This document shows, piece by piece, positions 25,645-42,750 of a stretch of DNA of 64,000 bases (positions within the stretch are counted from its first letter, which is position 1; the number at the start of each line of letters is the position of its first letter). The notes beneath the pieces were generated by a model. It saw only the letters and a list, made by a program, of their open reading frames with translations, ran no database searches and had not been told where the DNA came from. The translations under genes and the position numbers were made by a program. Source of the DNA: Diplolepis rosae (Eukaryota > Arthropoda > Insecta > Hymenoptera > Diplolepididae); assembly GCA_030998225.1 (NCBI GenBank), contig JAPYXD010000308.1, positions 4,970,001-5,034,000 of the forward strand, given 5' to 3'.

Positions 25645-27424
25645 TGTTACGTCCCGAGCTAAGGCGAGGGTAGGTTGGAAAAATTAGGAAAAGGGAGGAA
25701 AGTTTGCTGATTAAATCAGAGTGGTAAATTCTGATTATTTATATTTTTGTGGGATCGTGGTCACTAGTCAAACCTATGCGGCTCGAGTTGTTCACAATAA
25801 TAACAAATTTGGTTATATTGCGGTGTACAAGCTTTATTAATTAAAAGATAGATATACAATAAGTTTTGAGATGCTTATGTGTATGACTTATACTACTTCT
25901 CAGGATGAGAAGGCAATATTAAGGGTTTTATGCGTTTATGAGTTAGTAATACTGGTTTTGAGATGCCTATATATGTAACTCACGCATTAAAAGTGTGCGT
26001 CTATATAAGTCAATAATACAGGTTTTGAGATGCCTATATATGTGACTTCCGCGTTTAAGTGTGTGCGTCTACAAGTTATTAATACAGGTTTTGAGATGCC
26101 TATATATGTAACTTGTACGTTTTATGCAAATATACTAGGTTTTGAGATGCCTAGGTATACAACTCACGCACTACAATTGGCGTTATAGTTAATATAATAA
26201 GTTTTGAGATGCTTATTTATATAACTTACGCTTTTTCCTTGCTTGAGAAGGCAAGAGAAAGAGTTTTGTCGTATATTTCTCCTTGTTGATAGCTGGATAA
26301 CGGCACAATCCTGGCTGGAGTTAAGTAGTGCTAGTCAAGTAGTACAGGAAGCGTATCAGACAATCCAACTTGCTTGCTAAACACTGGTTAAGTTCGTTTT
26401 CTGTAGATTTAACTCTCAGAACTCGACTTAATACGACGATACACGTATTTAACGGCACTTATCAATTCACGACCACCGGACTTGCACCACTTAAGGACCA
26501 GGGATTTTATTTACCAAGTACCGAGGTATACCGACAGTATGACTTGCGGACGGAGTGATTACCGACGTTAAGATCTTGAAGACTGAACAGCTACTAGCGA
26601 AAAGACAACCTCCAGAGGTAAATCTGGGGTTTATATATTATTGATTATTCCCATAGTGGGAGAGTGACTGCTAATTTGTAGATCGGCACGTACGTTGCTA
26701 ATTTGTAGATCGGCACGTACAGTGATAATTTGTTGATCGGCACGCGTCTGGCGGCAATGTCGATGACCATGCTTGCTGACAGTCGCGGAAACTCGTGAAC
26801 TCGCGGCTAGTTCTCACGCAGGTCATACTATCGGGATCAAAGTCCATTGATGCTCGGTGCGGTATCTCTTTCTCTCGTCTTTTCAGCTATGTTATTTAAT
26901 ATATATATGTTGACAGGTCGGTGCAATTGTACTAGGTCATAATTGCACTGACTCATCTATTATTTTACAACTTGGTATATATTCTTATAGTATTTATGAA
27001 GTACATGAATTTTTGGTGTTTATATTCTAAAATATTATTCAAGCTAATATGCGGATCCCCAATAATGTGATTGATATTATTGATTGATTATCCATTATTG
27101 GTTATCGCTGATTATTATGTGCTGTTGTTTGATTATTATTACCAATCATTTAATGGCTGTTCTTAACAATAATGAATATTATTGTTATTTTTATTAAATA
27201 ATTATTAATTTTTTATTGGCTTGGTTCTCTACATTACCGACGGTAAGGTAGTTTTCCTATTTTATGCAACTCAACTGTCTTGTCGATCTCAGGTAATTAT
27301 CCTATCGACAAGTAGTTATCATCGCAGTGATGTGATTTACATTCGTCAATCGCCTGGTTGTATGTCGGGTTGCCTTGCTGTAGGCGCGATTTTAAATTTC
27401 TATTAATTTTTACGGGATGTAACA
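25645..27424 (-). repeat. 3' LTR, complete, 1780 bp
   Basis: It runs from TGTTACGTCCCG (plus-strand left end) to CGGGATGTAACA, giving TGTTAC/GTAACA inverted tips. The polypurine tract abuts at 27425. Inside are six copies of gttttgagatgc (25863, 25955, 26022, 26088, 26139, 26201) and three copies of a 27-bp unit with gatcggcacg (26671-26748). Both are candidate control repeats. It is identical to the other LTR apart from one 27-bp unit, one T and an A/G difference near 25680. Confidence 0.9.
25863..26225. repeat. Six-copy 'ggttttgagatgccta' repeat in the LTR
   Basis: Spacings between copies are 92, 67, 66, 51 and 62 bp, each followed by tatatatgtaact-like sequence. The same set is at 41642-42004 in the 5' LTR. 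This is a possible binding-site cluster in U3/R. Confidence 0.8.
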
Positions 27425-27840: not shown

Positions 27841-28518
27841 ATGGAGAACCAGGGATCATCTTCGAGCGGGTCAGCCACCATCCCCTACTCCCTTTGGATT
27901 GAAAACAACTCTCATTTGCCCTACAATCTTTTGGTGGATCGTGGGGTACCTCCTTTTGTTTTTTTGTGTTTCGTTAAGTGGGGTGTGTTATATAATAGCT
28001 TCGGTTTATTCCCATTATTTCTCAAAAGTGTCTTCGCGAGTGCCTTCGTTGTTTCCCTTTTTTGTTACTTCTCGGGCCGAATGATGGACGTTCCTGGATC
28101 TGAAGAGGCCGTTGCTGATTTTGATTTATCATTGCTGGATGATGTGGCTCAGCAATATCCGGTTAACGGGGGAGACGCGTCTTCTTCTGGCAGTTCTTCA
28201 GATGCATATATAAATTTCTTTGATTTCTCGACTGGTGCTGGGCGATGCGTTTCGAGATCGGATAGTTTATCTTTGCGCATTTCGTCGATAGAGGAGCGCT
28301 TAGGGATTTACCACGTTGCTGTTTGGGGTGTCAGGGCGGATACTATTCTCTCAACCTTCGCGGCTTGTTGTTCCGAACTTTTTGGGTGGTCTGTGTCTGT
28401 TTCGGACTTCACGGTAATCCATAGGTTGGATGCTAGTCGCGCGGGGTTTTTGCTGAGTGTGTCATCCCTTGCCCTTAAACGGCAAATTTTGTTGAAGACT
28501 GCCGACTTTCAGCTTTGA
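27841..28518 (+). CDS. Antisense ORF, 225 residues, beside the 3' LTR
   Basis: It runs opposite to the retrotransposon. The ATG at 27841 has a strong context (ttaaccATGG) and lies 417 bp past the inner edge of the 3' LTR, placed for antisense transcription out of that LTR. The product starts Ser-rich, has a hydrophobic stretch at about residues 38-78 (PPFVFLCF to VVSLFCYF), then an acidic/Ser-rich part (EEAVADFDLSLLDD), then a C-terminal block (YHVAVWGV to ALKRQILLK). That block weakly recalls the RRM-like fold of LINE ORF1 proteins. No family is assigned. No sense ORF overlaps it, so it is not a shadow. The hydrophobic part might be a retained intron. Confidence 0.45.
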   Translation: MENQGSSSSGSATIPYSLWIENNSHLPYNLLVDRGVPPFVFLCFVKWGVLYNSFGLFPLFLKSVFASAFVVSLFCYFSGRMMDVPGSEEAVADFDLSLLDDVAQQYPVNGGDASSSGSSSDAYINFFDFSTGAGRCVSRSDSLSLRISSIEERLGIYHVAVWGVRADTILSTFAACCSELFGWSVSVSDFTVIHRLDASRAGFLLSVSSLALKRQILLKTADFQL

Positions 28519-28671
28519 GGGTTCTTCCAGGAATCTGTTGACATGTGTGTGGCGGTTGCTCTTAATTTAGTTTTTTTTTTTGAATTCCAATGTCGTTGTT
28601 TTTATTGCTAATTTTGTTTAGTTGCTTCTTATGCATACGTGCAATTAATTAAAATTCTTTTTTCTTTTCAG

Positions 28672-29315
28672 GTTCTTATATTCGTGCGCCTCAAATTCCA
28701 CCTGCCAGCTCTATGAGGCAGGTGTACAACTTAACCTCTTCTTTGGTGCCTTGGATGCGTTTTTTATGGTTCCTGACGCAGGAACTGGTGTCAGGAGAAC
28801 AGTCGAGTGGTGGAGTAAGCCGTGGACTCGAGCGAAGTGTGCATGTTGATCTGCACACTCTGGCGGAGGCTTGTCGGGAGTCCCTTCACATAGTAGAAGG
28901 GTTGAACCGACTGGTGGTGGAGGACATCTCGCCCTTGCCTGCGCAGTATCGCCGAGTTTGCTGCCATTCGGTTCCTTCTGACATTTGTCTGGAATAAATA
29001 TCATTTTTTTTATTACTATCATTATTTTTATTATTATTGTTTGTGTATATATATTTTGATTCATTGTTCATTTCTTTATAATTCTTTGTTTGTTTTCAGC
29101 GTCCAGGGTACCGAAGATAGGTTCTGTCGCTGTGGACGATACGTGAGGATTCGACGTCGGAGCCTGTTCGATGTTCCTGCGGGTCCTTACTGGCTAGTTA
29201 CGAAGGTAATTAAACTCCTTTCCCTTTTTTTTTCGTTTGGTACTACCCTTTTTCTTTTCAAATTTTAGATTTTTAATTAATTATTTGTCTTTTTCAGTAC
29301 CGCGGCGTGAGGTAA
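28672..29315 (+). other. Antisense exon-like blocks with splice signals
   Basis: Strong 3' splice sites on the plus strand: tttcttttcag before 28672, gtttgttttcag before 29100, and tctttttcag before 29298. The block 28672-28996 is open (contains MRQVYNLTSSLVPW) and ends at a stop inside ggaataaat. Block 29100-29205 is open and ends in the donor AAG|GTAATT. Joining it to 29298 keeps frame and gives five codons and a stop at 29313. A further donor (GAG|GTAAGT, 30268) and acceptor (ccttccttag, 30424) lie downstream. The donors for the first junctions are unclear. This could be one antisense multi-exon gene with 27841-28518, or a captured host gene segment. Confidence 0.4.
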
Positions 29316-30461: not shown

Positions 30462-32432
30462 TTAGGCAATTCGGATATTTCGAATTGGAAATTTAGTAGT
30501 TTCTGTTTGTACTCGAATTTCAGGGATGTTTACTGGTTGTAAGTATTGTAGTTCTGTTGGTGCCTCTTCCTTTTGAGGGGTTCTTTTTGGGTTTTTTAAA
30601 CATTTTAGGATTGAATTTTTTCCAAAATAAATCATAATTATTATTATTATGATTATTATTGCACTAGATCCTCCTGTCCAGTATTTATTATGTAATTGTT
30701 TATTAAAATTTTGTTCTTCGAATTCTGTCAATTGTTCTTCTATGGTTGAAAGTGATTCGTCTGTGTGGAGCCTTTTCCAATTTCCTATGTGAGATTTTTC
30801 CCACGTAAAAGGTTTTATTTTAGGAAGTTGTTGAATTGTGTCCAACTTTGGAAGAATTTCAGTTATATTGAAAGTAAAATTAGGGTTGTAAATATATTCT
30901 TCTGTCCTTTTATTAATCTGAGTTCCGGTTAGGGTGGTATATTTCGTCCTTGCAGTACATCCTGTACCTAATCGGAGTAGTCCTGAATTGCTGAGGTAGC
31001 CTTTTTCCAGTTTTCCTTTTATGCAGTTGATGCTTATTGGCTCTGGATTTTTTGTTGAATAAATCCAGGCAGATAACGAAGGGATGTAGTTCCAATACAT
31101 TTCTTCTTCTATTTTCATCCTGATGTCACAAAGGTGAATGGTATCCTTTGATGGTCTTATCAACATCAAACACTCGCATGAGTTGGTTGTGGAAACTTCG
31201 TGCTTGGGCTGGGTGTTTTCGCAGATGGTGTTGTAAAAGGTTTTTTGACAATTATCATAATATTCTTTGCTTACGAGAAAGAATTTTCTTTCATCATTTG
31301 CCAGGGCAATATACGGAGTTTTAGGTATTATATAAATAGATGCTGTTGTATTCGGAGATATTTGTTGATACACTGGATGTGCATAAATTTCATAAAGCTG
31401 ATACCCTGCCTTATCAAGTAAGGGTATGTCGACGGCGATGAGCAGTCGTCCAGAGCTGATTCTAACATCTGTTTTTCCTAATTTTGATAGTTCTTCTGCT
31501 CGAACATGTGAGGTGGGTATTGGAAATTCGTTTTCACTTAATTTAAAATGTATTTCGGTAATGATTTCTTGGAGTTGTTCTTTAGTGAGAAGGAGTGGAT
31601 GTAACCTGTTTTTTCGTGCTGCTTCTACTATTTTTATAAATTGTTTTAAACTTTCGGCTAAGTGATTAAGTTTTATCTCGATATGGTCAGCCCATTGTCT
31701 TATTTTTCTGAAATATAAGGTGTTACTCCAGAATTGATTATGCGATTCTATGTTTTTGATGGTCTCGTTTAGTTGTTGTTGTATGTTTGCGATTTCTTGC
31801 GATTTTTGATTCAATTCTAGGTGAATGTTGTTGATTTCTGATTTGACAATGTGGGTCTGTTTTCTCAAAATTTTGCTAAGATTATTTTGTCTGTCATGTA
31901 GTTCGTTGATAGCGTTATCATATTCTTCTGCGTCGTCGGAAGTCATCACTCCTATCACTGGTCCAATAATTGATCCGATAAAGCCTAATAGGGGTGCTCT
32001 TCGTTTCTGCATACTTGGGGGTGGGTTTTCTGCTTCTGGTGTATCTTGTTTTATTTCTGCTAACATATTTTTTAATTCTTCATAGTTATTTTCGATTTGT
32101 TTGACTTTTCCATTCAACAGGTCTAGTCTAATTTCACTTCTGCAGTCTTCTTCTAGGGATTGGTCCAAACATGTTGAATATACGTTGTTTATATCAGTTG
32201 ATATGGTTTTAGATTGGAGATGGGCTTGTAGGTGCTGTGGATCTATATACACGACAATCCTGCAATATATATTGGTAATACGCAAGGGCTCAACTTTGGC
32301 GTAAAATAGTCCAGGGTTGTTTCTCAATGGTTGAATTTCATATTGTGTTGGGGTGACTGGGGTTGCAAAAATAATGACGATCAAGATCCAGGTCCATTTT
32401 TCTCGGCCTTGGGTGGCGTTTAGTTGGTCCAT
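30462..32432 (-). CDS. env: Envelope glycoprotein (errantivirus/baculovirus-F-like Env)
   Basis: A 656-residue intact frame. It would be made on the ER, cleaved, and mediate membrane fusion. The N-terminal hydrophobic segment at about 14-27 fits a signal peptide. A basic site QKRR (142-145) precedes a Gly/Ile-rich segment at 146-162, which fits a furin-type site followed by a fusion peptide, as in insect Env/F proteins. Helical heptad-like regions (about 166-260) follow, then several Asn-X-Ser/Thr sites. A membrane anchor lies at 589-604 with a 52-residue basic tail. The anchor is mostly an isoleucine run encoded by an ATT microsatellite, which is odd. A splice acceptor (ttttctgatacgcag) ends 18 bases before the ATG, so a spliced message is likely. 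Confidence 0.88.
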   Translation of the reverse strand: MDQLNATQGREKWTWILIVIIFATPVTPTQYEIQPLRNNPGLFYAKVEPLRITNIYCRIVVYIDPQHLQAHLQSKTISTDINNVYSTCLDQSLEEDCRSEIRLDLLNGKVKQIENNYEELKNMLAEIKQDTPEAENPPPSMQKRRAPLLGFIGSIIGPVIGVMTSDDAEEYDNAINELHDRQNNLSKILRKQTHIVKSEINNIHLELNQKSQEIANIQQQLNETIKNIESHNQFWSNTLYFRKIRQWADHIEIKLNHLAESLKQFIKIVEAARKNRLHPLLLTKEQLQEIITEIHFKLSENEFPIPTSHVRAEELSKLGKTDVRISSGRLLIAVDIPLLDKAGYQLYEIYAHPVYQQISPNTTASIYIIPKTPYIALANDERKFFLVSKEYYDNCQKTFYNTICENTQPKHEVSTTNSCECLMLIRPSKDTIHLCDIRMKIEEEMYWNYIPSLSAWIYSTKNPEPISINCIKGKLEKGYLSNSGLLRLGTGCTARTKYTTLTGTQINKRTEEYIYNPNFTFNITEILPKLDTIQQLPKIKPFTWEKSHIGNWKRLHTDESLSTIEEQLTEFEEQNFNKQLHNKYWTGGSSAIIIIIIIIMIYFGKNSILKCLKNPKRTPQKEEAPTELQYLQPVNIPEIRVQTETTKFPIRNIRIA

Positions 32433-32717: not shown

Positions 32718-33311
32718 TTATTGAGTGATATAAATTAAATTTGGATTTTTAATGTTATCTACAGGATCCCAAAAGTCCTCTTCCGTAACAGTGTAATTTT
32801 CTTTAAAATTTTTATTACGTTTTATTTTTTTTGAACAATTTTCTACTTTATGTCCTCGTAAATAACAATATTCGCAACATTGTTCCCACTTATATAGTTT
32901 AATGAGCATCCTACTTTCTTTGTCTTGACACAAAACAAAAATATCTTCTACTTCATTATTAATATTTCGCTCTTCGCTAAAATAATAATTATCCTCTAGT
33001 TTTTTTAGAATTTTCCTTGCTGCCTCATGTTCAGCTTTTTTAAGTTTGTTTTCGCCATTACTACTTTCTGAAAAAATCTTATTACGTTTACAATCTTTTA
33101 TAATACATGATGCGTAAAAAGTCCTATTATGAGCTGGTCCTTCTGACTTTATTAGGATATAAGAGGGTTTGGTAAATCCGTATTCGGCTGATAGCTCTTC
33201 CAACGCTCCCTTTGGATTCTTGAGGTGTTCCACATCTCCTTTGGGATGTATGTATGTGGGATAGATTTGTCCTCTGGGGAGTGGTGAGTCCAATGTTGTG
33301 AAACCAGACAT
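32718..33311 (-). CDS. Accessory protein: dsRNA-binding domain plus CCHC zinc knuckle
   Basis: 197 residues between pol and env. Residues 33-106 read as a double-stranded-RNA-binding domain: helix 1 (ALEELSAEYG), the conserved GPAHNRTF loop (58-65) before a beta strand, and a basic helix 2 (KKAEHEAARKILKKL, 91-105). A canonical CX2CX4HX4C knuckle follows at Cys146, Cys149, His154 and Cys159. The C-terminal tail is acidic then polar. The ATG at 33311 lies 46 bases after the integrase stop, and a splice acceptor (cttctcattatag) ends 7 bases before it. dsRBDs bind RNA duplexes, and viral ones often block RNA silencing. That role, or help with genome packaging, is an inference here. I know of no errantivirus with this pairing. 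Gag itself lacks a zinc knuckle. Confidence 0.8.
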   Translation of the reverse strand: MSGFTTLDSPLPRGQIYPTYIHPKGDVEHLKNPKGALEELSAEYGFTKPSYILIKSEGPAHNRTFYASCIIKDCKRNKIFSESSNGENKLKKAEHEAARKILKKLEDNYYFSEERNINNEVEDIFVLCQDKESRMLIKLYKWEQCCEYCYLRGHKVENCSKKIKRNKNFKENYTVTEEDFWDPVDNIKNPNLIYITQ

Positions 33312-33318
33312 GTCCTTC

Positions 33319-33320
33319 CT
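33319..33320 (-). promoter_or_regulatory. Probable splice acceptor for dsRBD/CCHC message
   Basis: On the minus strand cttctcattatag ends here, 7 bases before the ATG at 33311. A short pyrimidine-rich stretch precedes AG. It supports expression from its own spliced RNA rather than by reinitiation. Confidence 0.45.
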
Positions 33321-33356
33321 ATAATGAGAAGACTATTAGTTTCTAATATTAAGTGA

Positions 33357-34817
33357 TTATTCGTAAGCTATTTTGAGTTTGTCTACGTATTTTTGGAATA
33401 GGGTTTCGTTTTTGTCTTTCAAAATCGCTGTGTGTTTGTCCAAGAGTTTAATAATTTCGAACGGTCCATAATATTTACTGTCTAATTTACCGCGTTTTTT
33501 TACTTCCTTTTGTACATAGACTTTATCTCCTACTTTTCCAAGGAACGATCTTGCTTTAGCGTCGTAATTTAGTTTGGAGTTTTGTTTTGCCTTTATCAAA
33601 TTGTCAGCTGCCATATTTTTAATTTCTGTTAATCTGCAAATTAATTCTTGTAAATATGAACCGTACGTCTCTAATTTTTCGTAATTGGGGAATGAACTAG
33701 GGGTACGGGCTATTTTTCCGAACACTAATTCGAATGGGGTGAATTTTGTTGCACTGTGGACAGATGTGTTATAAGCAAACATGGCGAAGGGTAGCAGTTG
33801 ATCCCAATCGTCATAATTTTCTGCATAGGCTCTAACATAATCCATTAGTACGGCATGGCTTCTTTCTGATGAACCATTAGATTGTGGTCTATAGCCTGAG
33901 GTGGTTATTTGTTTTATTCCAAATATTTTTGATAAATTACTCAATAGGTTGTTCACAAATCCTTTTCCTTTATCGGTGAGAATTGCTTTTGGTGCTCCAT
34001 ACTGAGAAATAAGGTTTTTTGCTATTGCATGGGCTATTGTTGCTGCTGAGATGTCTGGAATTGGTACTGCTATACAGTATTTTGAAAGGTTGTCCTGCAT
34101 GGTTAATATGTGCTTATTGCCGTCTGGGGTGGTTGGTAATTTGCCTACAGTGTCTAAAGAAACTTTATCAAAGGTATCCAGGGGTGTATCTGTTATCACC
34201 ATGGGTTCATGAATTTTGGCTCTTACAATTTTTTCTTCTTGACAAATTTTGCATTTTCTTACAAAATCAGTGACTTGTTCTTTGATTCCTGGCCAAAAGT
34301 ACCTTTCTCGAATTCTTTGGTATGTTTTGTTAACTCCTTTATGGCCTCCGATCTTACTATTGTGGTTTTCAGAAATTATTTCTAGACGTGACTCCTCAGG
34401 AAGTGTACTTACATTTCCGTAACACATACTTATCTTTATATTACTGTTTTCAAACTCGTTGGTTATCATTTTGAGCAGTTCTTCCTTCATTAGGTCGTTT
34501 GTCAAGTCTCCTTGTCGCGAAATATGAAATTCGGTGATGTTTTCTCTGAATAGGGCCACTCTTAAATTATGGAGGGCTGTTTGGAGAATGGTTTTATCTA
34601 TGTCGTCGAAATGTCGGTTTTTTATTATCAGTGAATATACATTATATTGTCCTCTGGGGGTAATCAATACTTCTCCTATTTTTGGCTGTTTAATTTTCAA
34701 TTCCTGTGGGTCTATTGCTCCGATGTCGATTAGTAATCTTCCTACAGGGGTGGTTACTTCAACATCAGCAGAAAGAAAATGTACATAATTATTCCTTAAA
34801 TATGTTAAGTTTTCTCT
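33357..34817 (-). CDS. pol: Pol, second part: integrase, after an in-frame UGA
   Basis: The frame continues directly from the UGA at 34820-34818 with no shift, 486 residues to the stop at 33357. After an errantivirus-type pre-integrase region (SADVEVTTPVGR to NRHFDDIDKTIL) comes an HHCC zinc finger (HNSKIGGHKGVNKTYQRIR to CKICQ). The catalytic core has Asp in KVSLDTVGKL, Asp in ILTDKGKGFVN and Glu in SNGSSERSHAVL. A C-terminal DNA-binding part (GDKVYVQKE to YYGPFEIIKLL) follows. All key residues are present. The enzyme inserts the DNA copy into chromosomes. Without readthrough or reinitiation it would not be made from the Gag-Pol message, since no early ATG in good context is obvious. Confidence 0.88.
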   Translation of the reverse strand, partial: RENLTYLRNNYVHFLSADVEVTTPVGRLLIDIGAIDPQELKIKQPKIGEVLITPRGQYNVYSLIIKNRHFDDIDKTILQTALHNLRVALFRENITEFHISRQGDLTNDLMKEELLKMITNEFENSNIKISMCYGNVSTLPEESRLEIISENHNSKIGGHKGVNKTYQRIRERYFWPGIKEQVTDFVRKCKICQEEKIVRAKIHEPMVITDTPLDTFDKVSLDTVGKLPTTPDGNKHILTMQDNLSKYCIAVPIPDISAATIAHAIAKNLISQYGAPKAILTDKGKGFVNNLLSNLSKIFGIKQITTSGYRPQSNGSSERSHAVLMDYVRAYAENYDDWDQLLPFAMFAYNTSVHSATKFTPFELVFGKIARTPSSFPNYEKLETYGSYLQELICRLTEIKNMAADNLIKAKQNSKLNYDAKARSFLGKVGDKVYVQKEVKKRGKLDSKYYGPFEIIKLLDKHTAILKDKNETLFQKYVDKLKIAYE

Positions 34818-37800
34818 TCAGCTAAGAACTTTGAAGTTTGTCGTAGGGGCGTTTGAGCTACAACCGGTGGGTAATTCTGGGGGGATGCTGGTGATAAGCT
34901 TAGAAGTGTTTTTAGTCTTATCATTATGTGTGTTTTCAGAGATTTTTTCCGAAAATTGAGGAGTTTCCATGTCTATTCTGCGTGGCTTGTATCTAGTGGA
35001 TGAAATTACTGTATTGGAGTGGTCTTCTTTATTACTTGAATATGGGGTTGATATCGCTTTAGGTTCTTTGAATGCTGAAGGACTAACGTTTGCTAGCATG
35101 TCGGGTGTTGCAGGTATCTCGGGTCCAAAAGTTACGCTTTTCCGGGTCCGCAGAGGTGGATTGGGGGTAGGTTGATCTTCTTCATCAGAAGATGGGATTC
35201 CGGGGTCCAAATTTTCCTTTGTTTCTGGGTTCACCTCCTTTCCCATTTTTTGTGTTTCTTTCATCAATCTCTGTGCTGTTTCAATTGCTGTTTTAATTCG
35301 GTTATCAAATTCAGTTTCACTTTCTGGTTCTAGTTCTTCAATGGCTTCTAGGAGTTCCTGATTGTCTTCTCCTTCCGAAACGGCTGTGATCTCGAGGATA
35401 GGGGCATCTTTTTCAGTGTTTTCTTTTTCTAGCCAATTTTCGCGAGCCTTTAAAGATTTTTCAAACAATAAAAATGAGTTTTCCAGGCTCTCTTTTGATG
35501 GCTTAGGTTTACTTTCTTCTGTATGTTTATTGTCATCATCACTAGGACTATCTTCACTATCGCTTATAGGTGGACTAACGATTTTTATAGGTCCTTCTTG
35601 TTGTTGTACTGTAAGAATTGGTTCCTCTTGTTCCTCAAAAGGGAATTCAGTTTCGGCCTGTAGTACATTTGCTGGGGCACTTTTTGGTATAGTTGAGGAT
35701 GGATATGCTGCAGGGGGTAGATCTAAACTGGGTAGTAAACTTTTTCTTTTTCGCAGAATTGGAGGTGGTTCCAAGTCTTTTTCTGTATCATCAGAGCTAC
35801 TGTCATCTTTATAGTCAGGTTTTATCTTGACTCTTTGTTCTTCTGCTCGTCGACGGATCAGTCGTTTACTGATGGTACTTTTATCTACTTCTGCTGTAGT
35901 AGAAGTACTGGATTTAGATCGAGATAGAGTGGGGTTGAGCTGCTTCGTAGTAGATGGGTTTGAAAGTTCACCCTTTGGCTTCGCTCCCTTTCTGGTGAAA
36001 ATTGAGGGCTTGTTCACTAGGCCAGAGACTGATGTTTTTGTTTGAGGTTTAGTGCTGGATTCTATTTTTTTAGACTGTCGGGTGAACATCGGCATTATTC
36101 TGGGGGGTAATTCTTGTTTTAATGCTGCTGCGTTATTTTCTACTGGATTTCGAGAGAGGGCGTCGGCATTAATGTTTAGTTTGCCCGGTTTATACTTAAA
36201 TGTATACTCGTAGTCTTGTAACTTTAATCGCCATCGAATCAGTCTTTGCCCTGGGTCCTTGATTGAGTCTATCCATTTTAGTGGCTCATGGTCGCTCATA
36301 AGAGTGAATTTTCTTCCATATAAATAGGGTCTGAATTTTGCTATTGCGTATAACACTGCTAAACATTCTTTCTCAGTGGTTGAATAATTTAACTCGGGTC
36401 CAGTTAGTGCCCGTGATAGGTATGCTACTGGCAGGTCCATATTTTGGACTTCTTGGCTTAATACAGCGCCAATTGCGAAACCTGATGCATCTGTTGTTAC
36501 TGTAAATGGTTTATTAAAATCTGGATATTGTAAAATAGGGCTATTACATAGGGCTTGTCTTAATATTTTGAAACTTTTTTCTTCTTCTTTTCCCCATTTA
36601 AATAGTGCTTCCTTTTTCAAAAGATTCGTTAACGGTTTTGCTATTGCGGAAAAGTCTTTTATAAATCTCCGGTAGTATCCTGCTAGCCCTAGGAACGGTT
36701 TGATATTTTTAGGGTTCTTGGGTTGCGGAAAACATTGTACCGCCTCTATCTTCTTTGGATCGGGTTTTACACCTTCGCTGCTAATGATGTGACCCAAGTA
36801 AGCTATTTCCTTAAATAGAAATTCACATTTTTCGGGTTGCAGAGACAGGTTTGCTTCTTTTAATCGTTTCAGGAGTCTTCTTACCTTCTTTCCGTGTTCT
36901 TCTAGATTGTTTGCGTATACTACTATGTCGTCTAGGTATACGAATAGTTCTGTCCCTTGCAGTCCTATTAACACTTGATCCATTAGTCGTTGGAATGAGG
37001 CTGGCGAATTTTTTAATCCCATGGGCATTCTGACATATTCATAATGCCCATTTAATGATGAGAAAGCTGTCTCAGGTCTGTCCGCAGGGTCTAGTTCTAT
37101 CTGGTGAAATCCACTCGCAAGGTCAAATACTGAAAAATATTGGGCTCTACCTAAATGATCCAGAATTTCGGAAATATTTGGCAGAGGGTAAGCATCGCCA
37201 ATCGTCTTTTCATTGAGAAGGCGGAAGTCGATCACTATTCTCCATTTTCTTTTTCCGGTGTGGTCCAATTTTTTAGGTATAATTAGTAATGGAGAGTTGT
37301 AGGGTGATTTTGAATTTTGAATGGCTCCTTCAGTTTTCATTTTAGTTATGACGCGTTCTATTTCTTCTTTCTGAGCTGGTGAAAACCGGTAAGGGCGGGT
37401 ATTTATCGGTATTTCGTCTGTTGTATGTATTTTATGTTGTACCAGATGCGTAGAGGTTAGTGGTTCCCCAGGCAGATAAAAGCTATCTGGAAACTCTCGC
37501 ACTATTTCTATGACGTGCTCCTTTTCTTCTTGATTGAGGTGATCTAACTGTAATTTGTCAATTACTTCCTCTATTTTGTCTCTTTCAAATTTGAAATTTT
37601 CGACTAAAAAATATTCGTCTGAATCCTCTCCTGGTAAATTATAATATTCGAAGGGTATTAATTCTTGTGGGAGTATTTCAATGCTTAAATCTTTTTCAGT
37701 TGTGTTGATTGCTAATACGTGGCAAATTCCGTTTGCGTTTGTTACAGCTGCTTCACCCACTAGTACTCCTTCTGTAGTTTTAATTAAGGGTAGATAACCT

Positions 37801-38303
37801 TCTTTTAATTCTGTATTTGTGACTTCTACGGGGATTATTCGTTTAGTTCTGGCTTTGATCTGGATAGGTCCTAATGCTGTCCCTTTGTAGCCTTCCATAT
37901 TTTCCTGGACTATTTTGGATTCTTCGTCTACAAATGGTACGGGTTTGGTTGGGTTGGAATGAGTGACGATTGTGTTGTGCCAAAATGAAATCTCTACCTT
38001 TTCTTGTCGGAGGTATTCTCTTCCTAGAATCCCGTCGGTGCTGATAGGAAAATCTGGTTCTGTGACGTGAAAGGTCACTATTGAGTTTTTAATTTTTATT
38101 TGAACGGTTCCAAGGGTTGAAATCTTATTCTGGGTTATACCAGCTATTTCAATTGCTTCATTGTGTGATACCATTATGTCTTCGTCGAGTGAGCTTAGCT
38201 TAATTATGTTTACGTCTGCTCCAGTGTCGACTAGTAATTGGGCCTTGTTTTCTTTAAAATTGGGTGAGCTGATCTCTACTACTGGTGATTCTCTCCTAAA
38301 TTT
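34818..38303 (-). CDS. pol: Pol, first part: protease, reverse transcriptase, RNase H, acidic linker
   Basis: Reached by -1 frameshift from gag at 38303-38297. The aspartic protease has LLVDTGADVNII and, about 75 residues on, DGILGREYL. RT spans roughly 37.4-36.8 kb, with FSVFDLASGFHQI and the catalytic YLDD. RNase H has TTDASG, TEKECLA, SDHEPL and NADALSR, so all four acidic residues are there. From 36134 to 34821, 438 residues of low-complexity sequence follow, rich in Ser, Pro, Glu and Lys with acidic clusters, which no usual gypsy pol has between RNase H and integrase. The frame ends at a UGA (34820-34818), and the same frame then encodes integrase. Replication enzymes appear intact. An ATG at 38174 is internal to the protease and is not the start. 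Confidence 0.9.
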   Translation of the reverse strand, partial: KFRRESPVVEISSPNFKENKAQLLVDTGADVNIIKLSSLDEDIMVSHNEAIEIAGITQNKISTLGTVQIKIKNSIVTFHVTEPDFPISTDGILGREYLRQEKVEISFWHNTIVTHSNPTKPVPFVDEESKIVQENMEGYKGTALGPIQIKARTKRIIPVEVTNTELKEGYLPLIKTTEGVLVGEAAVTNANGICHVLAINTTEKDLSIEILPQELIPFEYYNLPGEDSDEYFLVENFKFERDKIEEVIDKLQLDHLNQEEKEHVIEIVREFPDSFYLPGEPLTSTHLVQHKIHTTDEIPINTRPYRFSPAQKEEIERVITKMKTEGAIQNSKSPYNSPLLIIPKKLDHTGKRKWRIVIDFRLLNEKTIGDAYPLPNISEILDHLGRAQYFSVFDLASGFHQIELDPADRPETAFSSLNGHYEYVRMPMGLKNSPASFQRLMDQVLIGLQGTELFVYLDDIVVYANNLEEHGKKVRRLLKRLKEANLSLQPEKCEFLFKEIAYLGHIISSEGVKPDPKKIEAVQCFPQPKNPKNIKPFLGLAGYYRRFIKDFSAIAKPLTNLLKKEALFKWGKEEEKSFKILRQALCNSPILQYPDFNKPFTVTTDASGFAIGAVLSQEVQNMDLPVAYLSRALTGPELNYSTTEKECLAVLYAIAKFRPYLYGRKFTLMSDHEPLKWIDSIKDPGQRLIRWRLKLQDYEYTFKYKPGKLNINADALSRNPVENNAAALKQELPPRIMPMFTRQSKKIESSTKPQTKTSVSGLVNKPSIFTRKGAKPKGELSNPSTTKQLNPTLSRSKSSTSTTAEVDKSTISKRLIRRRAEEQRVKIKPDYKDDSSSDDTEKDLEPPPILRKRKSLLPSLDLPPAAYPSSTIPKSAPANVLQAETEFPFEEQEEPILTVQQQEGPIKIVSPPISDSEDSPSDDDNKHTEESKPKPSKESLENSFLLFEKSLKARENWLEKENTEKDAPILEITAVSEGEDNQELLEAIEELEPESETEFDNRIKTAIETAQRLMKETQKMGKEVNPETKENLDPGIPSSDEEDQPTPNPPLRTRKSVTFGPEIPATPDMLANVSPSAFKEPKAISTPYSSNKEDHSNTVISSTRYKPRRIDMETPQFSEKISENTHNDKTKNTSKLITSIPPELPTGCSSNAPTTNFKVLS

Positions 38304-39388
38304 TGTGCACAGGACTTTCTTTGCTGCATTAATATCCTCACACTGCTTTGACGCTCTTTTTGGTCTGTGCTCGTCGTCGCGTCCTCTCGGCGAGCAAGGC
38401 TGGAGTTTAAATGTTCTGTGTTTGATGGAGATGGGGATGGCGTACGAGGGGGGTTGGTGGGGTTCTTATAGGGGTAGTTAGGGTTTGGATATGGAATAGG
38501 GTGATTTGGGTAATAAGGATATGGTTGATAGGGTGGATAGGGGTGGGGGAAACTGCTGGGGTAGTTTTGTTCCGTTGGGAAATGGTTTCGTCTATTTAAT
38601 TTAGGTGAATTTTGCCTATCTTCATTGGGTCTATTTCTTTCTGGAGAGGCCGCAAATCGGACATGCGGACTAGGGCTGCGATCACGCATTCCTGAGTATG
38701 CAGGTTGAGCAAAATTTCTGTCATAAAAGTTATTATGTGGGGATTGAGGGTTTAACTGATGTCTTGATTCGTATTCTATGGCATATTTTAGAGCTGCTTC
38801 TATTGAATTTGGATTTCGGCTTTCTACTGCTCCTGAGAGTCCATCTGGAAGTCCACGAATAAAAGATTCTAACGCACAATCGTTGAGAGGGGCTAATAAT
38901 AGTTCCGCGTTATCGTATTTATCCTCTAGTGCGGCTTGCGCACCAGATTTTAATAATGTAAGGCGATCGTAGTATTCACTTACACTTTCGTTACGGGTCA
39001 TTTTGATGTTCGAAATTTCGTGTGTGTACCACGTATATGACTTGTGAGGAGCAAACCGTTGTTTGAGGTGGTCAATCAAGTCCTTCATGGAGAAAAAACT
39101 TTTTCCATGTGTGCTATCTCTTGCTTCTCCCTTCAGTCGGGAGAGAACCGCCCTGATATACTGTTTTTCACAGTTGGCAGGTATGCTGGCTTCTCCGTTT
39201 ATCACGTCCTGAATAAAGTCTCTTACTGGCATATTTTTACCATTAAATATCGGCACATTCATTATGCCTTGTTGAATAGCAAAACATTCTGCCATGGATG
39301 TTACCATTGCGTCGTTTAAGGTACGCGAGATGTCGCCGGTAAAATCGGTTGCTCCGGTCTTGTCTGATCGAATGCTGTCTTTGGGCAT
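38279..39388 (-). CDS. gag: Gag capsid precursor
   Basis: 369 residues. Residues about 45-230 resemble Ty3/gypsy errantivirus Gag: FNGKNMPVRDFIQDVINGEASI, LKGEARD, YTHEISNIKMTRNESVSEYYDRL and LESFIRGLPDGL. The C-terminal third is basic, then Pro/Tyr/Asn-rich (SFPHPYPPYQPYPYYPNH), with no CCHC zinc knuckle. It would assemble the cytoplasmic particle. The gag stop at 38281-38279 overlaps pol in the -1 frame, and the AAATTTA slip site is 16 bases upstream. The ATG at 39388 is the first good start after the protease-like ORF. A Gag without a knuckle next to a separate knuckle-bearing ORF may mean the two work together in RNA packaging; that is inference. Confidence 0.85.
   Translation of the reverse strand: MPKDSIRSDKTGATDFTGDISRTLNDAMVTSMAECFAIQQGIMNVPIFNGKNMPVRDFIQDVINGEASIPANCEKQYIRAVLSRLKGEARDSTHGKSFFSMKDLIDHLKQRFAPHKSYTWYTHEISNIKMTRNESVSEYYDRLTLLKSGAQAALEDKYDNAELLLAPLNDCALESFIRGLPDGLSGAVESRNPNSIEAALKYAIEYESRHQLNPQSPHNNFYDRNFAQPAYSGMRDRSPSPHVRFAASPERNRPNEDRQNSPKLNRRNHFPTEQNYPSSFPHPYPPYQPYPYYPNHPIPYPNPNYPYKNPTNPPRTPSPSPSNTEHLNSSLARREDATTSTDQKERQSSVRILMQQRKSCAQNLGENHQ
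38297..38303 (-). promoter_or_regulatory. Programmed -1 ribosomal frameshift site AAATTTA
   Basis: In the gag frame the bases split A AAT TTA, the canonical X XXY YYZ pattern. Slipping back one base gives AAA TTT in the pol frame, which is open from there. The position, 16 bases before the gag stop, fits. I did not model a downstream stem or pseudoknot. Confidence 0.8.
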
Positions 39389-39564: not shown

Positions 39565-39915
39565 CTATTTGACTAAATCCGGAATAGGAAGATTCAATTT
39601 AGAAATAAAGGATTTTCCAATTACTCCTGCAATACCTGTACCAATTTCGTGTTTAATTATGTTGAATTTAATTGAATTACGCAAAATTGGGATTTCTACT
39701 GATCCTACTGTTGAAAGAGTGGCGTTATGTAGTATGTAGATTTTTAAATGGTTTATTTTGACTTCGGGAATTATTTTATCCTTTTGGATTAAATTGATAT
39801 TTAGTGTTGGATCGTACAAGAAATCTCCTACTTTATTTTTTAATAGGTCAGAATATACTGAAATTATAATATTGGTTTGATGTTTTATTATTATTTGAGT
39901 TTGGTTAGTTGTCAT
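39565..39915 (-). CDS. Retropepsin-like paralogue upstream of gag, catalytic motif lost
   Basis: 116 residues. The sequence aligns by eye with the element's own protease. FLYDPTLNINLI stands where the enzyme has LLVDTGADVNII. STVGSVEIPILRNSIKFNI matches STLGTVQIKIKNSIVTFHV. GVIGKSFISK matches the GILGREYLRQ flap-to-helix region. The catalytic Asp is kept, but DTG has become DPT, so proteolysis is unlikely. The fold (a half-dimer) may be kept for binding or for pairing with the active protease. The ATG is at 39915, and the frame ends 177 bases before gag. It could instead be a relic of an ancestral rearrangement, but the frame is open and A-rich like its neighbours. Confidence 0.65.
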   Translation of the reverse strand: MTTNQTQIIIKHQTNIIISVYSDLLKNKVGDFLYDPTLNINLIQKDKIIPEVKINHLKIYILHNATLSTVGSVEIPILRNSIKFNIIKHEIGTGIAGVIGKSFISKLNLPIPDLVK

Positions 39916-40287
39916 ATAATGTAGGCAACTTTATTATTATTATTTTGTATAACTATCGATTTGAATTTCAATCTGTTTCTGTTGAAGAATTTATGCTGTA
40001 GTTTCAACGTACTGTCGATTTTGGTCGCGATGTATGCAGGTACTCTACGTTCTTAGCCTTGAATGCTATGAATTCAGTGATGCAAAGGGGGTCAGGTCAG
40101 ACGTATTTAATATTCGCCTGAGTGAATATTACACTTGTTATTTTAATAGTTGTTTAAGAGAATTAACAAAAGTTATTTTGAACGATATGAGATTGGACAA
40201 GTTAGATTTAATGAAAATGCGTGAACAATTCTGACAATTATAAAATTTGTTTATTGCTAACAAATAACAAAATTGTTTATTTTTACA

Positions 40288-41423: not shown

Positions 41424-42750
41424 TGTTACGTCCCGAGCTAAGGCGAGGGTAGGTTGGGAAAATTAGGAAAAGGGAGGAAAGTTTGCTGATTAAATCAGAG
41501 TGGTAAATTCTGATTATTTATATTTTTGTGGGATCGTGGTCACTAGTCAAACCTATGCGGCTCGAGTTGTTCACAATAATAACAAATTTGGTTATATTGC
41601 GGTGTACAAGCTTTATTAATTAAAAGATAGATATACAATAAGTTTTGAGATGCTTATGTGTATGACTTATACTACTTCTCAGGATGAGAAGGCAATATTA
41701 AGGGTTTTATGCGTTTATGAGTTAGTAATACTGGTTTTGAGATGCCTATATATGTAACTCACGCATTAAAAGTGTGCGTCTATATAAGTCAATAATACAG
41801 GTTTTGAGATGCCTATATATGTGACTTCCGCGTTTAAGTGTGTGCGTCTACAAGTTATTAATACAGGTTTTGAGATGCCTATATATGTAACTTGTACGTT
41901 TTATGCAAATATACTAGGTTTTGAGATGCCTAGGTATACAACTCACGCACTACAATTGGCGTTATAGTTAATATAATAAGTTTTGAGATGCTTATTTATA
42001 TAACTTACGCTTTTTCCTTGCTTGAGAAGGCAAGAGAAAGAGTTTTGTCGTATATTTCTCCTTGTTGATAGCTGGATAACGGCACAATCCTGGCTGGAGT
42101 TAAGTAGTGCTAGTCAAGTAGTACAGGAAGCGTATCAGACAATCCAACTTGCTTGCTAAACACTGGTTAAGTTCGTTTTCTGTAGATTTAACTCTCAGAA
42201 CTCGACTTAATACGACGATACACGTATTTAACGGCACTTATCAATTCACGACCACCGGACTTGCACCACTTAAGGACCAGGGATTTATTTACCAAGTACC
42301 GAGGTATACCGACAGTATGACTTGCGGACGGAGTGATTACCGACGTTAAGATCTTGAAGACTGAACAGCTACTAGCGAAAAGACAACCTCCAGAGGTAAA
42401 TCTGGGGTTTATATATTATTGATTATTCCCATAGTGGGAGAGTGACTGCTAATTTGTAGATCGGCACGTACAGTGATAATTTGTTGATCGGCACGCGTCT
42501 GGCGGCAATGTCGATGACCATGCTTGCTGACAGTCGCGGAAACTCGTGAACTCGCGGCTAGTTCTCACGCAGGTCATACTATCGGGATCAAAGTCCATTG
42601 ATGCTCGGTGCGGTATCTCTTTCTCTCGTCTTTTCAGCTATGTTATTTAATATATATATGTTGACAGGTCGGTGCAATTGTACTAGGTCATAATTGCACT
42701 GACTCATCTATTATTTTACAACTTGGTATATATTCTTATAGTATTTATGA
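41424..42750 (-). repeat. 5' LTR, truncated, 1327 bp
   Basis: It matches 25645-26999 of the 3' LTR, starting at tgttacgtcccg. The match stops dead at tatttatga (42750), and the last about 425 bp (start of U3 on the sense strand) are replaced by mariner sequence. It has two copies of the 27-bp gatcggcacg unit where the 3' LTR has three. Loss of the U3 start may remove part of the promoter. Confidence 0.9.

What the first reader, a model, noticed from the sequence alone, without database searches (positions are those of the whole stretch)
32718..33311. Retrotransposon accessory gene joining a dsRNA-binding domain and a CCHC knuckle
Between pol and env of the errantivirus-like element is an intact 197-codon ORF with dsRBD hallmarks (helix 1, GPAHNRTF loop, basic KKAEHEAARKIL helix) and a textbook CX2CX4HX4C knuckle. 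dsRBD proteins of insect RNA viruses commonly shield dsRNA from Dicer, so this may be a silencing suppressor carried by an endogenous retrovirus. A role in RNA packaging or chaperoning is the main alternative. Its own splice acceptor just before the ATG suggests real expression.
Basis: partly seen in the sequence, partly recalled or inferred. Interest (0 to 1): 0.88.

Follow-up and report, generated by a model that had tools for sequence, protein, structure and literature searches.

The report
Retrovirus-like element's double-RNA-binding accessory gene
An endogenous retrovirus-like element carries, between its pol and env genes, an extra gene for a small two-domain RNA-binding protein that selection has kept intact in many copies, so whether such elements fight the host's RNA defences can now be tested directly.

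Summary
The ORF is real: 197 aa on the minus strand, with a dsRNA-binding domain (PF00035 E 4.4e-11; predicted fold matches solved dsRBDs) and one exact CX2CX4HX4C motif. It sits between integrase and env of a ~17 kb errantivirus-like provirus whose LTRs differ at 1 of 1327 aligned sites. It is a constant gene of the element: of 70 copies fetched, 70 have integrase upstream, 66 also env downstream, 54 are intact. dN/dS falls to about 0.15-0.25 (frame-shifted controls 1.0-2.1). Two families only about 50% identical keep the gene, its place and an acceptor-like site before the ATG. A distant lineage in the same genome has the same two domains, often beside a Cys-rich ORF. In the window's clade the third basic residue of the KKxAK helix is Glu in all 53 ungapped intact copies, and family 2 also lost the loop histidine; the matching Lys-to-Ala change in iridovirus 340R cost 12-fold affinity and suppressor activity. 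The distant lineage keeps KKxAK. The motif region is the most conserved part between families. Best reading: an accessory RNA-binding protein, probably a silencing antagonist (0.45), with an RNA chaperone/packaging role close behind (0.35).

The parts
32718..33311 (-). accessory ORF, 197 aa (P0001): dsRBD plus CCHC-type knuckle
   Evidence: dN/dS
32997..33215 (-). dsRNA-binding domain, residues 33-105
   Evidence: PF00035 E 4.4e-11; AlphaFold, and Foldseek against 1di2 with TM 0.93 by target and rmsd 1.0
33030..33032 (-). codon 94 (Glu) at the third basic position of KKxAK
   Evidence: Glu in 53 of the 53 intact copies with a residue there; 1 of the 54 has a gap
32835..32876 (-). CX2CX4HX4C knuckle, residues 146-159
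   Evidence: only such motif in six frames of the window; motif complete in 49 of 54 intact copies
33319..33331 (-). splice-acceptor-like pyrimidine tract and AG, 7 nt before the ATG
   Evidence: AG at this offset in 65 of 70 copies
33357..34817 (-). integrase reading frame
   Evidence: Integrase_H2C2 and rve
34818..38465 (-). pol reading frame: protease-like start (by reading), RT, RNase H, long acidic tail; ends at an in-frame TGA before integrase
   Evidence: RVT_1 1.5e-35
38279..39388 (-). gag, 369 aa, no CCHC motif
   Evidence: Retrotrans_gag 2.6e-5; motif scan and cysteine count
30462..32432 (-). env, 656 aa
   Evidence: Baculo_F 1.8e-49
41424..42750 (-). 5' LTR
25645..26999 (-). 3' LTR; 1 mismatch in 1327 aligned sites to the 5' LTR plus gaps of 27 and 1 nt

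Best explanation
A genuine accessory gene of an env-bearing Ty3/gypsy (errantivirus-like) element. SHOWN: it encodes a dsRBD followed by a conserved CCHC-type segment; it has a fixed place between integrase and env; it has stayed under purifying selection; an acceptor-like site stands just before its ATG. INFERRED: it is translated from its own spliced subgenomic RNA, as env is in errantiviruses (recalled). INFERRED, most likely function: it blunts the host's dsRNA/small-RNA defence. Because the canonical lysine contact is replaced by Glu in this clade, it probably does so through knuckle-assisted RNA binding, or by imitating TRBP/Loquacious-type partners of Dicer with a dsRBD used for protein contact, rather than by plain dsRNA coating. 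The distant lineage with an intact KKxAK could still coat dsRNA.
For: Domains and fold. Closest solved sequences are TRBP-family dsRBDs (TARBP2, Loquacious, Xlrbpa). Best structural match among viral models is a 173-aa DRBM protein of Iridovirus Liz-CrIV; 340R of iridovirus IIV-6, a dsRBD protein of that size by the layout in PMC4231766 (30 + 70 + 73 aa), is a proven RNAi suppressor (abstract and passages). That the two are orthologues is recalled, not tested. Selection: dN/dS in family 1 falls from 0.86 (dS<0.03) to 0.25 (dS 0.12-0.25) and 0.15 (dS>0.6), in family 2 from 0.51 to 0.16; frame-shifted controls 1.03-2.06 against 0.25 and 0.19. Synteny 66 of 70 loci. A separate lineage with the same two domains and KKxAK. 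A dsRBD ORF next to a Monjiviricetes-type fusion glycoprotein in the same genome hints that such genes entered retroelements more than once.
Against: No expression, binding or silencing data. K3 is Glu in every intact copy with a residue there and H61 is Asn in 19 of 19 intact family-2 copies. Between families the knuckle segment, not the dsRBD, is the most conserved part (pN 0.18 against 0.34), which suits an RNA-handling role as well as a suppressor; within family 1 the two are alike (dN/dS 0.22 and 0.21). Gag has no knuckle of its own, so the protein could stand in for nucleocapsid. In 340R the dsRBD alone did not suppress RNAi, so a dsRBD fold alone predicts little. The dsRBD tree does not resolve the two lineages as sisters nor point to a host parent.
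Confidence: 0.45

Rival explanations
1. RNA chaperone or packaging factor: the protein supplies in trans the zinc-knuckle nucleocapsid function that Gag lacks, while the dsRBD recognises a structured signal or dimerises.
For: Only CX2CX4HX4C of the element; Gag (369 aa) has none. The knuckle segment is the most conserved part between families and has dN/dS 0.05 in family 2; it is kept in the distant lineage (hhalign over 129 columns). Basic K-R-N-K segment after the knuckle. Copies are numerous and the window's insertion is young, so the gene goes with replication.
Against: Errantiviruses such as gypsy and ZAM replicate without a CCHC in Gag (recalled). A separate, acceptor-preceded ORF is an odd way to make a structural protein. 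A dsRBD is unusual for packaging. In family 1 the knuckle is no more constrained than the dsRBD (0.22 and 0.21), and the relative P0018, otherwise intact, lacks the second Cys.
Confidence: 0.35
2. Plain dsRNA shield like iridovirus 340R or DCV 1A, in the window's own clade.
For: dsRBD fold, GPAH loop in family 1 and K2 kept as Lys/Arg in 53 of 54 intact copies; insect-virus precedents.
Against: K1 is Leu/Ile in 53 of 54 and K3 is Glu in 53 of 53 intact copies with a residue there, and family 2 lost the loop histidine; 340R K89A at the K3 position bound 12-fold weaker and did not protect from Dicer. This is one route inside the best explanation.
Confidence: 0.12
3. Regulator of the element's own RNA (nuclear export, splicing balance or translation), a Rev-like role.
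For: A small RNA-binding protein that is probably made from a spliced RNA.
Against: No direct evidence of any kind.
Confidence: 0.12
4. Chance ORF or decaying relic without function.
For: 16 of the 70 fetched copies did not pass the intactness filter.
Against: 54 of 70 intact, dN/dS well under 1 with frame controls above 1, domains kept at about 50% identity.
Confidence: 0.01

Closest known systems
Errantivirus-type endogenous retroviruses (Metaviridae with Baculo_F env; gypsy, ZAM)
   Same: gag-pol-env order, gypsy-type RT/RNase H/integrase, Baculo_F env, LTRs
   Different: an extra dsRBD-knuckle gene between integrase and env; LTRs of about 1.3 kb; ~17 kb long; long acidic tail after RNase H (the contrast with gypsy and ZAM is recalled)
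Iridovirus IIV-6 340R (suppressor of RNAi)
   Same: small free-standing viral protein with one dsRBD and a C-terminal extension; a DRBM protein of Iridovirus Liz-CrIV is the top viral structural match
   Different: 340R has the basic K86/K89 contacts; this clade has Glu at the K89 position and adds a CCHC motif not mentioned for 340R in the passages read
TRBP/Loquacious family dsRBDs
   Same: best solved relatives by sequence (TARBP2 second dsRBD stretch); NPxGALxEL...P.Y...GPAH...F...C pattern; Loquacious dsRBD1 first by fold
   Different: single domain, KKxAK lost, fused to a knuckle; no supported host parent in the tree
Additional ORFs of plant Tekay elements with DRBM-like predicted folds
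   Same: LTR retrotransposon extra ORF with a predicted DRBM-like structure; the authors also raise suppressors of RNA silencing (PMC11728184, passages)
   Different: plants; similarity by predicted structure only; no knuckle mentioned in the passages read
sORF2 of Drosophila MDG1-group elements
   Same: accessory small ORF of an insect LTR retrotransposon (PMC11952523, abstract and section list)
   Different: sORF2 is a transmembrane fusogen-like protein, not RNA-binding

Membership tests
dsRNA-binding domain (PF00035) | profile score above the curated cut-off | tested here: met
   43.6 bits against 23; family-2 P0009 29.0 bits; degraded family-1 relative P0004 18.0, below
dsRNA-binding domain (PF00035) | alpha-beta-beta-beta-alpha fold | tested here: met
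dsRNA-binding domain (PF00035) | GPxH loop-2 contact | tested here: inconclusive
   His in 34 of 35 intact family-1 copies; Asn in 19 of 19 intact family-2 copies
dsRNA-binding domain (PF00035) | KKxAK helix-2 contact | tested here: not met
   L/I-K/R-x-A-E in the window's clade; KKxA/SK in the second lineage
dsRNA-binding domain (PF00035) | binds dsRNA | not testable with these tools
   needs EMSA
Retroviral-type zinc knuckle | C-X2-C-X4-H-X4-C spacing, conserved | tested here: met
   (49 of 54 intact copies)
Retroviral-type zinc knuckle | PF00098 profile match | tested here: not met
   no hit at E<=1
Errantivirus-like provirus | gypsy-type RT, RNase H, integrase, Baculo_F env and LTR pair | tested here: met
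Viral suppressor of RNAi (functional class) | basic contact residue at the 340R K89 position | tested here: not met
   Glu, compared with PMC4231766
Viral suppressor of RNAi (functional class) | suppresses silencing in a reporter assay | not testable with these tools
   no assay

The most novel reading that the evidence does not exclude
Retroelements of this genome repeatedly carry counter-defence genes built on a dsRBD: the window's pol-env clade, a distant lineage with a Cys-rich plus dsRBD-knuckle gene pair, and an element with a mononegavirus-type envelope. The window's clade has shifted from coating dsRNA to a knuckle- or protein-contact-based block of the host's Dicer pathway.
Probability: 0.3. 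Interest if true: 0.9.

Novelty: new variant of a known kind. Interest (0 to 1): 0.74.

Why it matters
Insect viruses often encode RNAi suppressors, but whether insect endogenous retroviruses do is, as far as I know, open. Here is a compact, recently mobilised, selectively maintained candidate in two deep lineages, one with and one without the classical RNA-contact residues. That is a built-in comparison for testing what the protein does. If it is instead a trans-acting nucleocapsid, it would be a new way to build a retroelement particle.

Tried and rejected
Chance ORF: rejected by selection and synteny.

dsRBD-knuckle ORF directly upstream of a protease in the second lineage: seen at one locus (L083/L086) but rejected. 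That protease belongs to a very abundant separate element (150 scored of 3667 candidates); compared by eye with the list, the other 149 matches come no closer than about 7 kb to a listed dsRBD ORF.

Capture from a named host gene: the tree of 21 dsRBD rows has 9 open forks of 18 and warns of long branches; left open. It also does not group the window's clade with the second lineage; their kinship rests on profile comparison (shallow profiles, Neff about 2) and shared two-domain layout.

Between-family dN/dS: dS saturated in 663 of 665 pairs, so not used.

Viral contigs: one scan, 47 pattern matches, none confirmed as a relative. A second AlphaFold run with 32 sequences did not firm up the C-terminal half.

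Papers: searches (one search was on 340R). No listed paper describes an insect LTR element with a dsRBD; of the hits (54, 51 and 56 papers) only 15 each were listed. PMC4246233 mentions dsRNA-binding only for Loqs/R2D2 (passages). PMC12992720 and PMC5408684 were searched for terms only, nothing relevant. 'Not in print' means no more than that.

Full report
WHAT IS THERE. The ORF at 32718-33311 is on the minus strand, like the whole element. A pair of ~1.3 kb repeats, 41424-42750 and 25645-26999, frames a ~17.1 kb provirus; the two align with 1 mismatch in 1327 sites and gaps of 27 and 1 nt, so the insertion is recent. In order: gag (39388-38279), pol with RT and RNase H and a long acidic tail, integrase, the accessory ORF, env with a Baculo_F domain (E 1.8e-49). 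Pol and integrase are separated in this copy by one in-frame TGA at 34818-34820.

DOMAINS. PF00035 matches residues 33-105 at E 4.4e-11. The nearest solved sequences are TRBP-family dsRBDs (TARBP2 2e-9 over two domains, the better one 6e-5; Loquacious 1.9e-6; Xlrbpa 4.6e-5). AlphaFold gives helix 33-43, strands 50-57, 64-73 and 78-83, helix 90-108 at high confidence; residues 1-25, 111-139 and parts of the C-terminus are below 50 (a second run was no better). Foldseek: 1di2 (dsRBD on dsRNA) at TM 0.93 by target and rmsd 1.0, Loquacious dsRBD1 first by E-value. Among viral models the first is a 173-aa DRBM protein of Iridovirus Liz-CrIV, then a nudivirus DRBM protein and VP8 of Kadipiro virus; NCBIfam's seadornavirus dsRNA-binding model also hits, E 9.4e-8, below its cut-off. 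The knuckle is the only CX2CX4HX4C in six frames of the window; Pfam zf-CCHC does not hit.

A CONSTANT, SELECTED GENE. The window's own assembly (757.7 Mb) gave 150 scored matches out of 1924 first-look candidates: family 1 (about 72-100% identity) and family 2 (about 45-53%). I fetched 70 loci with flanks, the window's own copy among them: 47 of family 1 and 23 of family 2, mostly the best-scoring rows, so they favour intact copies. All 70 have integrase sequence upstream and 66 of 70 also have env sequence downstream; the gap from integrase to ORF is mostly 49-50 nt in family 1 and 36-39 nt in family 2. Between families integrase is about 72%, env about 55% and the ORF about 50% identical (e.g. 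L035). 54 of 70 pass the intactness filter (35 and 19). Pairwise dN/dS falls as dS grows, as expected for selection in the active lineage diluted by neutral decay after insertion: family 1 0.86, 0.47, 0.44, 0.25, 0.19, 0.15; family 2 0.51, 0.40, 0.30, 0.16, 0.16. Integrase (0.27 and 0.11 in the highest dS classes of families 1 and 2) and env (0.22 and 0.18) behave alike. Reading the same pairs in the wrong frames gives pN/pS 1.03-2.06 against 0.25 and 0.19. The filter keeps only stop-free copies and pairs are not independent, so the numbers are descriptive; between-family dS is saturated and was not used.

EXPRESSION SIGNAL. Just before the ATG stands CTTCTCATTATAG|GAAGGAC in the window and typically TTTTCTTTTACAG|GAAA(A/G)TC in family 2, although the sequence further upstream has diverged. 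AG is at that exact offset in 65 of 70 copies (one of these, L059, is an offset alignment in which the match is fortuitous). Of the other five, L048 and L061 are rearranged, L065 and L070 have the AG shifted by one or two bases, and L050 has lost it. 61 of 70 have ATG at the aligned start. The second lineage has CTGTTTCAG or TTTGTTTCAG at the same place in the two copies seen. Splicing itself is inferred.

THE CONTACT RESIDUES. Helix 2 of canonical dsRBDs reads KKxAK before AA. The window reads L90-K91-K92-A93-E94-H-E-A97-A98. Among the 54 intact copies position 94 is Glu in 34 of 34 family-1 and 19 of 19 family-2 copies with a residue there (one gap); position 90 is Leu or Ile but for one copy; position 91 is Lys or Arg but for one; K92 is Asn in 34 of 35 family-1 copies; H61 is His in 34 of 35 of family 1 and Asn in 19 of 19 of family 2. 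The database relatives P0018, P0020, P0022 and P0028 (36-54% identical) have the same A/S-E-H; a few members (P0005, P0010) have Lys there. In IIV-6 340R, K89 lies three residues before its AA92 pair, the same place; K89A bound long dsRNA at 1626 nM against 139 nM, did not protect from Dicer and lost suppression (PMC4231766, abstract and passages). So the classic shielding mechanism cannot be assumed here. Between families segment 136-165 with the knuckle is the most conserved: pN 0.18 against 0.34 for the dsRBD; in family 2 its dN/dS is 0.05 against 0.17, but in family 1 the two are alike, 0.22 and 0.21. Relative P0018 lacks the second knuckle Cys.

A SECOND LINEAGE. A PF00035 scan of the assembly (58 matches at E<=1e-6, 150 of 1563 candidates scored) showed host genes and further element-like ORFs; I fetched 14 of those loci. 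One group (L079, L083; database P0052-P0067) has a dsRBD with T-K-K-x-A/S-K-H in most members, then Y-L-F-S-E, then LYKWTGTCERCYQRGHKPVNC in the members that reach that far. Profile comparison with the window's clade aligns 129 columns across both domains, probability 98.9, E 2.1e-17; the dsRBD tree does not resolve the two as sisters. It has at least 150 scored matches in the assembly, many intact. A Cys-rich ORF lies within 1.5 kb upstream on the same strand in 35 of the first 40 rows and in 6 of 6 of a 49%-identical group, but in 0 of 15 of a 45%-identical group (one search is a capped list, so absence there is weak). What lies further upstream could not be fetched. A third type (L080, L084) is a dsRBD-like ORF; L080 stands just after the C-terminus of a Monjiviricetes-type fusion glycoprotein (2.5e-52).

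READING. Shown: a selected two-domain accessory gene. Inferred: RNA binding, own mRNA, function. I place silencing antagonism first because free-standing dsRBD proteins of insect viruses are known to do that (340R; DCV 1A), because the nearest dsRBDs are those of Dicer partners, and because dsRBD ORFs appear in more than one kind of element here. The Glu at K3, the conserved knuckle and a Gag without a knuckle keep an RNA chaperone/packaging role almost as likely.

NOVELTY. Eight searches of the paper library on this topic listed no insect LTR element with a dsRBD; three of them listed only 15 of 51-56 papers. The nearest report is a passage on maize and sorghum Tekay elements whose extra ORF resembles a DRBM protein by predicted structure (PMC11728184). 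Of the 41 relatives that one search lists above the RNase III hits, all but P0028 carry the label 'ena', and P0055 of the second lineage is identical to a copy in this assembly, so most may come from this same species; P0028 ('lgn') is of unknown origin. Spread beyond this host is therefore not shown. That the host is an insect rests on the env type and on a Loquacious-like host dsRBD (L077), recognised from memory.

CHANGES AFTER RE-CHECK. Counts were recomputed and PMC4246233 was looked into; the weaker constraint on the knuckle in family 1 and the group without the Cys-rich neighbour were added.

Noticed in passing
window 34818-34820 (-): One in-frame TGA separates the RT/RNase H frame from integrase in this copy; a rearranged copy (L061) is open across that junction.
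   Followed up: partly
window 39565-39930 (-): ORF of 116-121 aa upstream of gag resembles the element's own protease region (18% identity over 98 columns, E 2.4e-6 for the single pair) without its DTG; no Pfam hit. Possibly a degenerate duplicate protease.
   Followed up: partly
window 27841-28518 (+): 225-aa ORF antisense to the element between env and the 3' LTR, no Pfam hit, beside and within a stretch of higher G+C (0.46 in 28001-29000).
   Followed up: no
L080 (C217:1383700-1384100), L084 (C30), L088: dsRBD-like ORF directly after a Monjiviricetes-type fusion glycoprotein C-terminus (L080/L088): another element or viral insertion with a dsRBD gene.
   Followed up: partly
L087, L089, L090; coordinates: Cys-rich ORF of about 154 aa paired with the dsRBD-knuckle ORF of the second lineage in many copies; no clear Pfam family (best E 0.049).
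   Followed up: partly
window 43414 to past 50000: Long tandem array of a ~137-nt satellite beside the provirus.
   Followed up: no
window 41703-41901 and the matching part of the 3' LTR: Three ~66-nt direct repeats inside the LTR.
   Followed up: no
L061; P0017: Rearranged copies in which the integrase frame runs into the dsRBD ORF.
   Followed up: no
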